In this document: in pieces, positions 1-5,106 of the stretch
Position numbering within the stretch: the first letter of the stretch is position 1
How the letters are laid out: every line of letters begins with the position of its first letter
Assembly (NCBI GenBank): GCA_009781125.1
Contig: WQYS01000181.1
Coordinates: 1-5,595, forward strand
Direction: 5' to 3'
Source: Acidobacteriaceae bacterium
Lineage (GTDB): Bacteria; Acidobacteriota; Terriglobia; Terriglobales; Acidobacteriaceae
DNA: 5,595 nucleotides
Notes under the pieces: model-generated
Database searches by the model: none
What the model was told of the DNA's origin: nothing
What the model saw: the letters and a program-made list of their open reading frames with translations, nothing else
Made by a program: the position numbers and the translations under genes

Positions 1-387
1 AAGCTCGACTTCGAGTTGAAGGCCGAGGTCCAGCGGGACATCTATCGCGCACGTAAGGAAGACCCGAAGCGCGACATGGCCGACATAAAAAAGGAAGTCG
101 CAGAGGAGCATGAACTACCTTTCATCAACGGCGGCATCCAGATTCCAGATGCGCGCATTGAGTTCGACCGCGACGACGACCGTAAACGAATCGAAGACCG
201 CGATCAAGGTTCTCGCTCCGGTGGTCACGAGGACATCGAAGTGCTGACCGCCGCCTACGGTCGCAGCCACCTTCGCGCCAAGGCGCAGTCCGGCTTCCAC
301 AACTACGCCACGTCAGCCGACTGCGCCAGCATCACCGCCAGGATTGAGGACGACCGCGGCCTGATGGAGAACATCCTCGACCTATGA
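1..387 (+). CDS. 3' end of an uncharacterised mobile-element-type protein (partial)
   Basis: The frame is open from the first base to the TGA at 385-387, giving 128 visible residues, so the true start lies upstream of the window. A TTG at 16 could be called as a start, but nothing resembling a ribosome binding site precedes it and the frame continues to its left. The fragment is very charged: an N-terminal helix rich in Lys, Arg, Glu and Asp, then a segment IPDARIEFDRDDD, then DIEVLTAAYGRSHLRAKAQSGF. From memory, an 'IPD-RIE(Y/F)' stretch followed by 'VE(V/L)-T--Y-G-HL--KA-(S/A)GF' recurs at the C-terminus of DNA-binding or relaxation-type proteins on plasmids and integrative elements. I cannot check this and assign no function. 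The gene overlaps the next one by ATGA, so the two are probably co-translated. Confidence 0.75.
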   Translation, partial: KLDFELKAEVQRDIYRARKEDPKRDMADIKKEVAEEHELPFINGGIQIPDARIEFDRDDDRKRIEDRDQGSRSGGHEDIEVLTAAYGRSHLRAKAQSGFHNYATSADCASITARIEDDRGLMENILDL

Positions 388-1445
388 CGCTGGACTACGA
401 TCCCATCTCCCGCCTGCAGGCTCCGGGGTATACGGAGCGCGAGGCCACATTTCTGTACCTCGTCGCAGTTCATTCCGGTTTCTTTCTCCGCCAGCAGTAC
501 CTACGTTTCATCCGTCGCAGTAGCGGCGCTCTGGACGAACAGTTCCTGCGCCAAGCCTCCCGGCTCGGTCACATCCAGAGCCTCGCCTTCGGCAAATCAC
601 GGCGCGTCTACCATCTGACTTCGCTCCAGATTTACGCAGCCTGCGGTCTGGGAGACTCTCATCACCGCCGCAATAAGGCCGACGCCGCCATCAAGTCCCG
701 GCTCATGGTTCTGGACTTCGTCCTCGATCATCTCGACGATTCTATTCTCTCGACTCAGCAGGATAAGTCCGATTACTTCACCGAGAACCGCGGCCTCAAC
801 GAGTCCATCCTGCCACGTTCCCGTGGCGTGGTTTTCTCCGATGAGTTTCCCATCCTTATTAACAAGAACGGCCTTGTCCGCTTCACCTTCTTCGACGAGG
901 GAACGCTCTCGCTCAGTTCCTTCGAGAAATTTCTCAGCCAGCACCGCGCCGTCTTCACCGCGTTGCCCGGTCTCGAACTGCTCTATGTCGCCGATTCGGA
1001 GCGGAATATCGCCTCTGCCCAGGCGCTTTTTAACTCGAAGCTCGACAAAGTCGCCACCTCTCGCGTGTCGCCCCTGATGCCGCGCGGCCTCGATCACCTG
1101 ATCGAGTACCTCTCCTTATATAACCGCTTTGAAGTGCGGAACCAGTCGTCAACCCTGCGAGAACTTGCCGATCTGCGCGAAGGCAACGCTCTCTACAACT
1201 CGCTGCAGCATCGCGCGCTTGTGTCACAACTCGATGGCACACGGTACGAATTTGACAGAATCCGTCAGCGGTTGAGCAAGCTAACGGGGACGCAGGTGTT
1301 CACTGCGGTTGTTCTGCCCCATCGTTACCCGCTCTACAGCAGCAAATCCCAGCACCCGCCTAAGCCAAAGTCTGACTCTAGCGGGTACTCTACCCAGAAG
1401 CCAATCCAGAAAAGACAACCCATTCAGTATGAGCTATTTAGCTGA
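384..1445 (+). CDS. Conserved hypothetical protein with winged-helix-like N-terminus, mobile-element associated
   Basis: A complete 353-residue frame starts at ATG 384, overlapping the upstream stop as ATGA. A GGAGA at 366-370 lies 13 nt before the start, rather far, so coupling to the upstream gene probably drives translation. Residues about 16-90 (YTEREATFLYLVAVHSGFFL, then LRQASRLGHIQ and RVYHLTSLQIY) look like a helix-turn-helix or winged-helix domain with a beta-wing, of the sort seen in replication-relaxation and related plasmid proteins. The middle (about 100-300) is mixed alpha/beta with no catalytic motif I recognise. The C-terminus (about 324-353) is a basic, Pro/Gln/Lys-rich low-complexity tail ending YELFS. 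There is no signal peptide or membrane segment, so it should be cytoplasmic and probably binds DNA. Existence of the gene is well supported by its length, codon pattern and operon overlap; its function is unknown. Confidence 0.8.
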   Translation: MTLDYDPISRLQAPGYTEREATFLYLVAVHSGFFLRQQYLRFIRRSSGALDEQFLRQASRLGHIQSLAFGKSRRVYHLTSLQIYAACGLGDSHHRRNKADAAIKSRLMVLDFVLDHLDDSILSTQQDKSDYFTENRGLNESILPRSRGVVFSDEFPILINKNGLVRFTFFDEGTLSLSSFEKFLSQHRAVFTALPGLELLYVADSERNIASAQALFNSKLDKVATSRVSPLMPRGLDHLIEYLSLYNRFEVRNQSSTLRELADLREGNALYNSLQHRALVSQLDGTRYEFDRIRQRLSKLTGTQVFTAVVLPHRYPLYSSKSQHPPKPKSDSSGYSTQKPIQKRQPIQYELFS

Positions 1446-1464
1446 GCGGATGTAGGCGGGTAAA

Positions 1465-1551
1465 AGAAGTTCTACGGGGAGAGCGACCGCACCCCGCCGG
1501 GGTTGACACGACGGCTGACGCCGCGCTGGTCGCTCTCCCCGTAGAACTTCT
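1465..1551. repeat. Perfect 24-bp inverted repeat enclosing two small hairpins
   Basis: The left arm at 1465-1488 is the exact reverse complement of the right arm at 1528-1551, with no mismatch over 24 bp and 39 bases between them. Inside the 39 bases are two smaller hairpins: 1491-1503 (5-bp stem ACCCC/GGGGT, loop GCC) and 1512-1523 (4-bp stem CGGC/GCCG, loop TGAC). A single strand could therefore fold into a three-way, cloverleaf-like structure. It begins 20 bases after the stop of the 353-residue gene. On the plus strand no T-run follows, so it is not a typical intrinsic terminator in that direction; read on the minus strand it is followed only by a short TTTTA. It could be a single-strand-recognised site (transfer or replication origin, recombination site), a small non-autonomous element, or a transcription barrier. 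No target-site duplication is seen at its edges. Confidence 0.9.
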
Positions 1552-1624
1552 CAGATACAAATCAGATCAGCCGCAGATACAAAATAGATGTTTCCAGTAT
1601 CTGCGACAGATACAAACCAGATCA
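1552..1624 (+). repeat. Three iteron-like CAGATACAAA-CAGATCA repeats plus one inverted half copy
   Basis: Three 18-bp copies are visible: 1552-1569 (CAGATACAAATCAGATCA), 1574-1591 (CAGATACAAAATAGATGT) and 1607-1624 (CAGATACAAACCAGATCA). Their starts are 22 and 33 bases apart, i.e. whole multiples of 11, so they would lie on nearly the same face of the helix. An inverted partial copy, GTATCTGCG at 1597-1605, pairs with CGCAGATAC at 1572-1580. The array begins at the very base after the large inverted repeat ends. This is the layout of a multi-site protein-binding region such as a plasmid iteron array or an autoregulatory operator. No replication initiator is in the window, so the role is inferred. 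Confidence 0.75.
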
Positions 1625-1674: not shown

Positions 1675-1860
1675 CGGACCTTAACAGGGACCAACTCAGG
1701 ACATGAACAGGTCCGTCATCCGGCCCGAACCAGTCCCCGATTCGGACCTTAACAGGGACCGGCTCGGGACCGGAACAGGCTCCACATCAATCCGGCTTCA
1801 CTCAAAACCGGGACCAACCCAGGATCGGAACGAGTACCAAGTCGGTCCCTAACAGGTACT
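1675..1860 (+). repeat. Degenerate tandem repeat field, 11-12-bp GGACC..AACAG units
   Basis: An 18-bp block, CGGACCTTAACAGGGACC, occurs exactly at 1675-1692 and 1743-1760 (68 bases apart), and similarity continues for about 19 bases (32 of 37 identical overall). Each block is built of shorter 12-12-11-base units, for example 1676-1687, 1688-1699 and 1700-1710, and again at 1744, 1756 and 1768. A more decayed third block lies at about 1810-1845 (GGGACCAACCCAGGATCGG...) and a fourth hit, CGGTCCCTAACAGGTAC, at 1843-1859. The arrangement suggests an old short tandem repeat that was duplicated and has drifted. An open frame runs across it on the minus strand, but its protein is only repeat translation. 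Function unknown; a protein-binding array or a leftover satellite are both possible. Confidence 0.7.
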
Positions 1861-2214: not shown

Positions 2215-4434
2215 ATGGAACTGACGCCCTACCATGTTCGATATTTTGCTCACGAACTGACCAAACGGTCCAGTTCGGCGTCGGTTGACAGTCTCACGTC
2301 GGCTCTGGCGGATGCTCAGGTTGACCTCAATCCCCATCAGGTCGAAGCCGCGCTCTTCGCCTTTCGGTCTCCGCTTTCACGAGGTGCAATCCTTGCCGAT
2401 GAAGTCGGCCTTGGTAAGACCATCGAGGCCGGAATCCTGCTCTCACAGCGTTGGGCGGAACGCCGCCGTCATCTTCTCGTCATCTGTCCGGCGAATCTGC
2501 GCAAGCAATGGGCACAGGAACTCGCCGACAAATTCTTCCTGCCGTCATCCATCCTTGAAACCAAGACCTTCAATGAGGAGGTCAAACGCGGGAATCTGAA
2601 TCCGTTTGACCAGCAAAAGGTCGTACTCTGCTCCTATCAATTCGCCCGTACCAAGGATGTCTACATTAAGCAGACTCCTTGGGATATTGTGGTGATTGAT
2701 GAGGCGCACCGCCTTCGCAATGTTTACAAGCCCGGCAATAAAATCGCCAATGCCATAAAGGATGCAGTCAAGGATCGCCCGAAGACTCTGCTTACAGCGA
2801 CTCCGCTTCAGAATTCGCTTCTGGAACTCTACGGCTTGGTAAGCATCATTGATGAATTCACATTTGGCGATCTGAGGAGTTTCCGCAGTCAGTTCTCGCG
2901 GATAAACTCTCAAGATGATTACCGTGCGCTTCGGGAGCGCATTCGGCCTGTCTGCCAGCGGACTCTTCGCCGACAGGTTCTTCAATATATTAGCTATACC
3001 AATCGGCACGCGCTGGTTCAAGAGTTCACCCCGAACCCGGACGAACAGCGGCTCTACACCTTGGTATCGGAGTATCTGCAATCGCCACGCCTGTATGCTC
3101 TGCCAGCCAGCCAGCGACAGTTGATGACCCTGATCCTGCGCAAACTGCTGGCATCTTCGACCTATGCCATCTCGGACACGCTGCTTGGCCTTGCCAATAA
3201 GCTGGAGGCTATCGAAAACGCGCAGGTTGCTCTGGACACCCCCTCGTCAGAGGAGTTGGGAGAGAACTTCGAGGCTTTGCCAGAGATCGAAGACGAATGG
3301 CTGGAGGACGAGCCGGATGAGGACGCCGACAGGACAAATGCTGTTCAGCAGTTATCGCCTGAGCAACGGGAAGAGCTTCGTGCCGAAAAAGTAAAGCTAC
3401 GCCAATTTCATGATCTGGCGAAGAGCATACAGAAGAACTCCAAAGGCGAGGTACTGTTGACGGCTCTTCGTAGGGGATTCGATGCAGCCAACCGCGCTCG
3501 CGAGGAACACCAGAACGGCGCTCTCCAGCAGAAGGCCATCATCTTTACAGAATCGAGGCGGACGCAGGAGTACCTGCTTCGTCTGCTGGAGGAGTCGGAG
3601 TTCGCTGGAAAGATCGTCCTGTTCAACGGCACGAACAGCGATCCCAAGAGCGCCGAAATCTACCGAAACTGGTTGGAGCGATATAAAGGGACCGACCGTG
3701 TCACCGGCTCGCCCACAGCGGACAAACGCGCCGCACTGGTTGAGTATTTCCGGGACGAAGCCAGCATTATGATCGCCACCGAAGCGGCGGCGGAGGGCAT
3801 CAATCTCCAGTTCTGCAACCTCGTGGTCAACTACGATATGCCGTGGAACCCGCAGCGTATCGAGCAGCGCATTGGCCGCTGTCATCGCTACGGGCAGAAA
3901 TATGATGTAGTAGTTGTCAACTTCCTGAACCGGGCTAACGCTGCCGACGTTCGCATCTACCAGATTCTTGCTGAGAAGTTCCAACTCTTCGATGGCGTCT
4001 TTGGCGTGTCTGATGAGGTTCTCGGCTCCGTGCAGTCGGGCGTGGACTTCGAGAAACGTATCGTATCTATATATCAGCAGTGCCGGACGCCGGAGCAGAT
4101 CGAGTTTGAGTTCGATGCCCTACAGAAAGAACTGGAGTCGGACGTAGCGCAGGCGCGTTCCGTGGCGCAGGAGCAGTTGCTCAACAACTTTGACCAGGAG
4201 GTCATCGAGAAGGTTCGTGTCGAGGCTGGCAAGTCCCGTAACCGCTTCGAGGAAATGCTGTGGAATGCGACACTTTTCTATCTCCAGCCATATGCAGCCT
4301 TCGACAAGACTGGTCGCAGCTTCCAGCTTGAGCGGAACCCTTTCCCGGAGGAGCAGATTCACTCCGGCCCGTACCGGATGGGTCGCAACGTCGAGGACGC
4401 GAACACCTACCGCATAGGCCATCCACTTGCATAG
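2215..4434 (+). CDS. RapA-like SNF2-family helicase, N-terminal 739 residues up to an in-frame amber stop
   Basis: This encodes an ATP-driven DNA translocase of the bacterial SNF2/RapA type. From ATG 2215 the motifs are: Walker A DEVGLGKT (62-69, Lys68), DEAH box (162-165), TATPLQNS (from 194), an acidic linker rich in Glu and Asp (about 346-374), IIFTESRRT of the second RecA-like lobe (from about 442), TEAAAEGINLQ (from about 522) and the arginine-finger motif QRIGRCHRYGQ (551-561). All catalytic residues look intact. The start MELTPYHVRYFAHELT fits what I remember of a bacterial SNF2 family of about 950 residues. The frame ends at TAG 4432-4434 after ...YRIGHPLA, yet the same frame continues as RVLGQCLALDTPPVELRF... 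to 5106, so this is a truncated piece of a 963-codon gene. The alternative start TTG 2179 is less likely. The family occurs in restriction and defence loci; DISARM DrmD is a related possibility, but no other DISARM gene is visible. Confidence 0.9.
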   Translation: MELTPYHVRYFAHELTKRSSSASVDSLTSALADAQVDLNPHQVEAALFAFRSPLSRGAILADEVGLGKTIEAGILLSQRWAERRRHLLVICPANLRKQWAQELADKFFLPSSILETKTFNEEVKRGNLNPFDQQKVVLCSYQFARTKDVYIKQTPWDIVVIDEAHRLRNVYKPGNKIANAIKDAVKDRPKTLLTATPLQNSLLELYGLVSIIDEFTFGDLRSFRSQFSRINSQDDYRALRERIRPVCQRTLRRQVLQYISYTNRHALVQEFTPNPDEQRLYTLVSEYLQSPRLYALPASQRQLMTLILRKLLASSTYAISDTLLGLANKLEAIENAQVALDTPSSEELGENFEALPEIEDEWLEDEPDEDADRTNAVQQLSPEQREELRAEKVKLRQFHDLAKSIQKNSKGEVLLTALRRGFDAANRAREEHQNGALQQKAIIFTESRRTQEYLLRLLEESEFAGKIVLFNGTNSDPKSAEIYRNWLERYKGTDRVTGSPTADKRAALVEYFRDEASIMIATEAAAEGINLQFCNLVVNYDMPWNPQRIEQRIGRCHRYGQKYDVVVVNFLNRANAADVRIYQILAEKFQLFDGVFGVSDEVLGSVQSGVDFEKRIVSIYQQCRTPEQIEFEFDALQKELESDVAQARSVAQEQLLNNFDQEVIEKVRVEAGKSRNRFEEMLWNATLFYLQPYAAFDKTGRSFQLERNPFPEEQIHSGPYRMGRNVEDANTYRIGHPLA
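4432..4434 (+). other. In-frame amber codon interrupting the helicase gene
   Basis: TAG at codon 740 is the only stop between 2215 and 5106 in this frame. There is no frameshift: the residues on both sides (GHPLA, then RVLGQCLALDTPP) join smoothly. The family, as I remember it, carries a Gln at this place (HPLAQR), so a single C-to-T change of CAG to TAG at 4432 would explain it. It could be a real nonsense mutation, a sequencing error or, less likely, a readthrough site. Confidence 0.85.
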
Positions 4435-5106
4435 CGTGTCCTTGGGCAATGCCTCGCGCTCGACACGCCGCCTGTTGAGTTGCGTTTCAATCTCACGAAG
4501 AGCGGGAAGCGTATCGCCGCCCTGGAGCCGCACGTCGGCCATAGCGGATGGCTGGTCTGCTCCAGGTTCACCGTAGAGTCCTTCGAGTCCGAAGAGAACA
4601 TCCTCTTTGCCGGAATCGAGGACGGCGGCCAGCCGCTCGATGACAACGCCTGTAGGCGGCTCTTTGATCTTGCCGCCGAAACGGGCCAGCCGGTTCTGCC
4701 GGTTGCGGTCCCTGCACTTGACGATCTGCTTCAGACGCAGAAAGATGACATCCTAGCCGAGATTGGCAAACGTAATAGCAGTTGGCTCGATCAGGAGACC
4801 AGCAAACTGGACCGCTGGAGCGAAGACCTGAAGTTCGGTCTGGAACAGGAGATCAAAGACCTCGACCAGCAGATTCGTGATGCCAAGCGGTCATCCGCCG
4901 CCGCCGCTACACTGGACGAAAAACTCGTCCATCAGCGTGCGCTTAAGGCGCATCAAGCCATGCGCAATCAAAAGCGGAAAGACCTCTTTGTCGCGCAGGA
5001 TCAGGTTGAGGATAAGCGCGACGCTCTTATCGCCGATATTGAAGCCCGTATGACCAAGGGACAAGCTGAAGAATTGATTTTTCGCATTCGCTGGAGTCTG
5101 ACATGA
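4435..5106 (+). pseudogene. C-terminal part of the SNF2-family helicase, downstream of the amber codon
   Basis: These 223 codons continue the helicase frame without a shift and end at TGA 5104-5106. The first part (RVLGQCLALDTPPVELRF, then GKRIAALEPHVGHSGWLVCS) resembles the beta-rich domain that follows the motor in this family. Residues numbered from the full gene, about 839-945, form a charged coiled coil (KLDRWSEDLKFGLEQEIKDL and onward), and the tail FRIRWSLT resembles the end of full-length homologues as I recall them. A TTG at 4480 could start a separate 208-residue protein, but there is no clear ribosome binding site and it would cut into the domain, so independent translation is doubtful. 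With the upstream piece the gene is 963 codons, the length expected for the family. Codon choice remains like the upstream part, which suggests a recent interruption rather than long decay. Confidence 0.8.
5093..5096 (+). promoter_or_regulatory. Ribosome binding site for the DUF2130-type gene
   Basis: GGAG sits inside the last codons of the helicase frame, six bases before ATG 5103. Together with the ATGA overlap it indicates coupled translation. If the amber codon stops ribosomes at 4434, coupling would be lost and expression of the downstream gene would depend on this site alone. Confidence 0.6.

What the first reader, a model, noticed from the sequence alone, without database searches (positions are those of the whole stretch)
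4432..4434. A single in-frame amber codon splits an otherwise intact SNF2 helicase
The frame runs from 2215 to 5106 with one stop, TAG, at codon 740. Residues after it continue the family's C-terminal region in the same frame, and the downstream overlap with the next gene is preserved. A simple reading is a recent CAG-to-TAG change, i.e. a defence-type gene freshly switched off, or a sequencing error. A rarer option is regulated readthrough, which would give a short motor-only form and a long form.
Basis: partly seen in the sequence, partly recalled or inferred. Interest (0 to 1): 0.7.

Follow-up and report, generated by a model that had tools for sequence, protein, structure and literature searches.

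The report
Single stop codon in helicase gene
A helicase gene, probably a defence gene, on what looks like a mobile element of an uncultured bacterium carries one stop codon where nearly all relatives examined have glutamine; it looks like an ordinary recent loss-of-function allele or a sequence error, not a special decoding device.

Summary
Frame 2215-5106 has one internal stop, TAG at 4432-4434 (codon 740), followed by 223 open codons of the family's C-terminal region. Of 119 listed relatives, 113 have a residue there: 109 Gln, 3 Arg, 1 Lys, no stop. None of 99 loci covering the place stops there. The part after the stop shows no extra decay: branch ratio 1.88, rank 53 of 94 tips, median 1.69. 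Best reading: a very young nonsense allele of an accessory helicase on a conjugative-type element, or a one-base sequence error; without reads these cannot be separated. Regulated readthrough is not supported: the stop is not shared, lies inside a predicted C-terminal domain, and has no unusual RNA fold after it; lesions in relatives are scattered. TAG-as-Gln recoding is unlikely: one TAG against 101 ordinary Gln codons, while TAG ends 19 of 76 long frames in ten kin loci. The helicase resembles DrmD below its curated cut-offs; in kin it usually has a Mod-like gene downstream.

The parts
2215..4434 (+). SNF2-type helicase, 739 codons and the stop: SNF2 motor (residues 55-282 and 452-560) and the beginning of the C-terminal domain
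   Evidence: SNF2-rel_dom E 1.1e-34, Helicase_C E 1.2e-20; best full-length relatives 88-90% identical
4432..4434 (+). in-frame TAG, codon 740; Gln in 109 of 113 listed relatives with a residue there
4435..5106 (+). continuation of the same frame, 223 codons and TGA: rest of the C-terminal domain, long coiled coil and last strand
   Evidence: layout from the model of the relative P0002
5103..5595 (+). start of the next gene (runs off the window), relative of the DUF2130 protein that follows the helicase in close kin
   Evidence: 75% identity to L001:8889-9356; DUF2130 in L001
2091..2234 (+). leader shared with kin loci at the helicase start (81% to L003, from just upstream into the gene); the helicase operon probably begins here
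384..1445 (+). gene of the carrying element, 353 aa; matches (E up to 0.001, many distant) in 64 of 299 sampled genomes of the class
1..387 (+). C-terminal end of the element gene before it; both genes occur together in all of L103-L110

Best explanation
An accessory SNF2-type helicase gene, cargo on a conjugative-type element of a bacterium close to Acidobacteriota (inferred from its nearest relatives), has acquired one premature TAG at a codon that is glutamine in nearly all relatives examined. Translation should stop after 739 residues (shown: the codon; inferred: that it terminates). The product keeps the whole ATPase motor but loses most of the C-terminal domain and the coiled coil, so it is probably non-functional or misfolded (inferred). 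The allele is very young: no further decay is detectable (shown, within the power of the test).
For: 109 of 113 listed relatives with a residue at the column have Gln and none stops; 74 of 99 loci have Gln and the others another residue. No second stop in 963 codons. Post-stop to pre-stop branch ratio 1.88, rank 53 of 94 tips, median 1.69. Simulated neutral drift of 0.10 substitutions per site after the stop would raise the ratio to 4.1-5.0, reached by 2-4 of 93 other tips; drift of 0.03 or less would not stand out. No private change at otherwise invariant columns, 0 of 348 before and 0 of 27 after the stop, a weak test because 75 and 104 of the 109 sequences also have none. TAG ends 19 of 76 long frames in ten kin loci.
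Against: No reads and no genome, so a one-base error would look the same; the lack of decay that makes the allele young is also what an error predicts. Breaks in other metagenomic relatives may be errors too. The 25 best places in 299 sampled genomes have no internal stop, so broken copies are not common in genomes.
Confidence: 0.6

Rival explanations
1. The stop is a one-base sequencing or assembly error in a short contig; the gene is intact.
For: No detectable decay; the part before the stop is known from one contig (P0001: 1 member, 1 contig of 5595 bases); no whole genome is held.
Against: No other sign of error: the four frames have no further stop. The cluster of the post-stop frame, P0121, lists 3 member sequences, which could not be opened and may or may not share the stop. 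Nothing direct either way.
Confidence: 0.31
2. Regulated or leaky readthrough gives a short motor-only form and a long form.
For: The part after the stop is as constrained as in intact relatives, which maintained readthrough would also give.
Against: Stop not shared by any relative examined (0 of 113; 0 of 99); it falls in helix 737-747 of the modelled relative; no unusual fold of 4432-4531; no recoding element in the Rfam scan.
Confidence: 0.05
3. The host or element reads TAG as glutamine (alternative code or suppressor tRNA).
For: The TAG stands at a Gln column; the three frames whose ends are seen in the window end in TGA, so no other TAG is seen to terminate.
Against: 1 TAG against 79 CAG and 22 CAA in 1608 codons; 19 of 76 long frames in ten kin loci end in TAG (mechanical frames); no tRNA in the window. 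In the recoded phage phAss-1, TAG is spread over 41 ORFs (PMC10607447, passages seen).
Confidence: 0.02
4. Two genes: the motor and the C-terminal part are separate proteins in this lineage.
For: The C-terminal search finds short proteins with recurring lengths of 242 and 210 aa; a frame can start at TTG 4480. One relative, P0103, aligns by BLAST up to window residue 738, near the stop.
Against: All nine 242-aa hits start at the same internal Met (window residue 722), which explains the recurring length. No ribosome-binding sequence seen before 4480 (by eye). 0 of 99 loci stop at codon 740.
Confidence: 0.02

Closest known systems
Nonsense alleles / young pseudogenes of accessory genes
   Same: single premature stop in an otherwise intact frame; other broken copies at scattered places in relatives
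   Different: no difference seen; whether the base is real is untested
DrmD (DISARM SNF2-like helicase; NCBIfam NF038318, NF038317)
   Same: closest curated models, 651 and 258 bits; PADLOC DrmD 645 bits
   Different: both below the curated cut-offs (950 and 610); genes downstream in close kin are DUF2130, AAA_13 and type III Mod or Res
RapA (bacterial SNF2 ATPase)
   Same: best relative among solved structures by profile and by fold
   Different: 16-17% identity and TM-score 0.40-0.54 by query length for the five RapA rows in the top 50
TAG-recoded phages (phAss-1, PMC10607447, passages seen)
   Same: TAG at a column that is Gln in relatives
   Different: one TAG in the whole window, no tRNA seen in it, TAG terminates frames in kin loci

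Membership tests
young nonsense allele | relatives have a sense codon there | tested here: met
   113 of 113 listed relatives with a residue there, of 119; 99 of 99 loci that cover the place
young nonsense allele | homology continues in frame after the stop | tested here: met
young nonsense allele | base supported by reads | not testable with these tools
   no reads; no genome held
older pseudogene | relaxed constraint or further lesions | tested here: not met
   rank 53 of 94; no second stop; drift of 0.03 per site or less would be missed
programmed readthrough | stop conserved at the same place in relatives | tested here: not met
   0 of 113, 0 of 99
programmed readthrough | stop at a domain edge, leaving a stable short form | tested here: not met
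   residue 740 is in helix 737-747 of P0002's model, block pLDDT 84 and 91; domain limits judged from secondary structure only, pTM 0.58
programmed readthrough | stimulating RNA structure | tested here: not met
   z -0.33 for 4432-4531; no recoding family in the Rfam scan
TAG-as-Gln code | TAG frequent at Gln columns and not a terminator | tested here: not met
   1 TAG in 1608 codons; TAG ends 19 of 76 long frames in ten kin loci, not in the same genome
TAG-as-Gln code | CUA tRNA in the genome | not testable with these tools
   none in the window; genome not held
DISARM DrmD | curated NCBIfam cut-off | tested here: not met
   651.1 against 950; 258.2 against 610 for the part before the stop; P0002, full length, 647.3 and 258.7
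DISARM DrmD | DrmA, DrmB, DrmC neighbours | tested here: inconclusive
   not among the families shown for 8 kin ORFs (lists cut at 25 rows); the window ends in the next gene
type III restriction-modification cluster | Mod gene near the helicase | tested here: met
   in kin, not in the window: a Mod-like match in 61 of 80 loci, and in 54 of the 61 loci with at least 4 kb downstream (54 counted by hand from the listing); some matches are only 25-35% identical and may be other methyltransferases

The most novel reading that the evidence does not exclude
The TAG is a conditional switch: the long, active helicase is made only when a TAG suppressor is present, for instance one brought in by an infecting TAG-recoding phage, so that the defence gene is armed by the invader's own tRNA. 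The in-frame TAGs in L014 and L039 would be independent cases. Against it: scattered, unshared positions, and the L039 gene also ends in TAG. Nothing here excludes it.
Probability: 0.01. Interest if true: 0.85.

Novelty: new member of a known kind. Interest (0 to 1): 0.13.

Why it matters
As it stands, little: it is one more apparently fresh loss-of-function allele, or an error, in an accessory gene of a mobile element. It is useful as a worked example: codon identity in relatives, a fixed-tree rate test and a power check separate 'young or artefact' from 'old pseudogene' without reads. The helicase family itself, often found with Mod-like methyltransferase genes in loci from several phyla, may deserve more attention than the stop.

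Tried and rejected
Two-gene organisation: the recurring 242-aa C-terminal hits looked suggestive, but all nine start at the same internal Met. Clustering of breaks: the nine shorter relatives among the 119 listed end roughly between window residues 650 and 815, but the list holds only the best scores and so favours late breaks; not taken as evidence. Clean ends of P0105 (before a Trp column) and P0106 (before a Gln column) look like further nonsense alleles, but a gene cut by a contig end would look the same. dS between the window and the six nearest loci compared is 1.6-4.1 before the stop, near saturation, so it was not used to date the stop. Viral contigs: two loci (58% identity) for the helicase, none for the upstream gene. 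Plasmid records: no match for the upstream protein and no DNA match covering 80% of the window; phages: one short DNA match. Rfam: two matches far below gathering score, on a hairpin. Papers: none in the held library has both 'SNF2 helicase' and 'DUF2130'; one has DUF2130 and restriction (listing only). PMC10853773 and PMC12458937 (passages seen) showed nothing on this helicase with type III Mod genes in those passages. Searches on broken defence genes, readthrough, recoding and type III restriction were seen as listings only, apart from the papers named here and PMC10607447.

Full report
Observation. The frame 2215-5106 holds one internal stop, TAG at 4432-4434, codon 740. After the stop 223 codons stay open to a TGA that overlaps the ATG of the next gene at 5103.

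What stands at codon 740 in relatives. A search with the part before the stop listed the best 120 of 7998 scored proteins; the first is the window's own. Of the other 119, 113 have a residue in the column: 109 Gln, 3 Arg, 1 Lys; 6 have a gap because they end or lose the alignment before it. Of 114 loci held by then, 99 cover the place: 74 Gln (CAA 38, CAG 36), 10 Lys, 7 Glu, 4 Arg, 2 Ser, 2 Leu, no stop (some genes may be held twice, as L003 and L083, which lie in the same genome). In 299 genomes of the class of G001, the 25 best places show no stop inside (two of them, in G009 and G090, have identical coordinates and may be one record); two weak matches further down the list (33-35% identity, G292 and G016) contain one TAG each.

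Has the gene decayed? On a tree of 109 full-length sequences with fixed topology, the window's terminal branch is 0.130 before the stop and 0.244 after it. The ratio 1.88 ranks 53 of the 94 tips with a pre-stop branch above 0.01; the median is 1.69. The C-terminal part evolves faster in most of the family. In simulation, neutral drift of 0.05 substitutions per site after the stop gives ratios of 2.9-3.5 (reached by 8-15 of 93 other tips) and 0.10 gives 4.1-5.0 (2-4 of 93); drift of 0.03 or less would not stand out (four runs each). The window has no private change at columns otherwise invariant among the 109, 0 of 348 before and 0 of 27 after the stop; this is weak support, since 75 and 104 of the 109 sequences also have none. 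dN/dS against six loci is low on both sides of the stop and within or close to the range between intact relatives, with dS near saturation. So the stop is young, or not real, or read through.

Is the stop a device? A device should be shared, and in this sample it is not. Breaks in relatives are scattered. Among 80 loci, L014 has in-frame TAG at its residues 53 and 675 and L039 at 627; all three are TAG. P0105 and P0106 also end cleanly, before Trp and Gln columns, but could be cut by contig ends. P0084, P0090, P0101, P0103, P0104 and P0108 end with 2 to 21 residues that do not align to their nearest full-length relative. An AlphaFold model of the intact relative P0002 (mean pLDDT 77, pTM 0.58) puts residue 740 in helix 737-747. 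Judged from secondary structure, the C-terminal domain begins after the helix that ends at 690 and continues past the stop to about 830; a coiled coil and a last strand at 950-962 follow. The short form would keep the motor and end inside that domain. The 100 bases from the stop fold no better than shuffles. No tRNA lies in the window.

Recoding. The four frames hold 79 CAG, 22 CAA and 1 TAG in 1608 codons. In ten kin loci 19 of 76 long frames end in TAG (mechanical frames, other genomes). In the TAG-recoded phage phAss-1 TAG is spread over 41 ORFs (PMC10607447, passages seen). The window does not look like that, but its own genome could not be examined.

What the gene is. The motor is SNF2-type. 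The nearest curated names are DrmD models, both below their cut-offs (651 of 950 and 258 of 610 bits), so I do not call it DrmD. In the close Acidobacteriota loci L001, L003, L004 and L005 it is followed directly by a DUF2130-type gene; L003 and L004 then have an AAA_13 ATPase, and L001, L003 and L005 a type III-type methyltransferase; L065 has Mod and Res. L002, also close, shows none of these. Of 80 loci, 61 show a Mod-like match; of the 61 loci with at least 4 kb downstream, 54 do (the 54 counted by hand; some matches only 25-35% identical). A defence role is therefore likely but inferred. The best solved-structure relative is RapA.

Where it sits. The two genes upstream (1-387, 384-1445) occur together in all eight of L103-L110. 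In the four wider loci (L111-L114) the pair is followed by a gene of about 680 aa and then a gene that in L113 matches VirB11/TrbB/TadA-type conjugation ATPases, all below the curated cut-offs; the other three show a protein with a similar start there. In the window the helicase with its leader (from about 2091) stands behind the pair instead. That the helicase operon is cargo on a conjugative-type element is an inference from this.

Verdict. An ordinary, very young nonsense allele (0.60) or a one-base error (0.31); readthrough 0.05, recoding 0.02, two genes 0.02. Reads would separate the first two.

Noticed in passing
window 1464-1553: Hairpin with arms of about 25 bases (-63.6 kcal/mol for 1464-1558) just downstream of the element gene; DNA from 1476 on also matches the stretch behind the same gene in L103-L106. 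Possibly a terminator or another structured feature of the element.
   Followed up: partly
L001-L080, downstream of the helicase: Mod-like methyltransferase genes follow the helicase in 61 of 80 loci from several phyla, and a DUF2130 gene in 7 of 80; no paper with both 'SNF2 helicase' and 'DUF2130' is in the held library.
   Followed up: partly
P0145 and P0159: Two short relatives join the first 67-89 residues of the helicase to its last 96-195; P0159 is listed on 8 contigs, which suggests internal deletions that persist.
   Followed up: no
L014:6001-8880 and L039:2-2821: Relatives with in-frame TAG codons at other places (residues 53 and 675; 627), all TAG.
   Followed up: partly
window 1680-1860: Short imperfect repeats around the words ggacc and gaacagg in the non-coding stretch before the helicase leader (by eye).
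   Followed up: no
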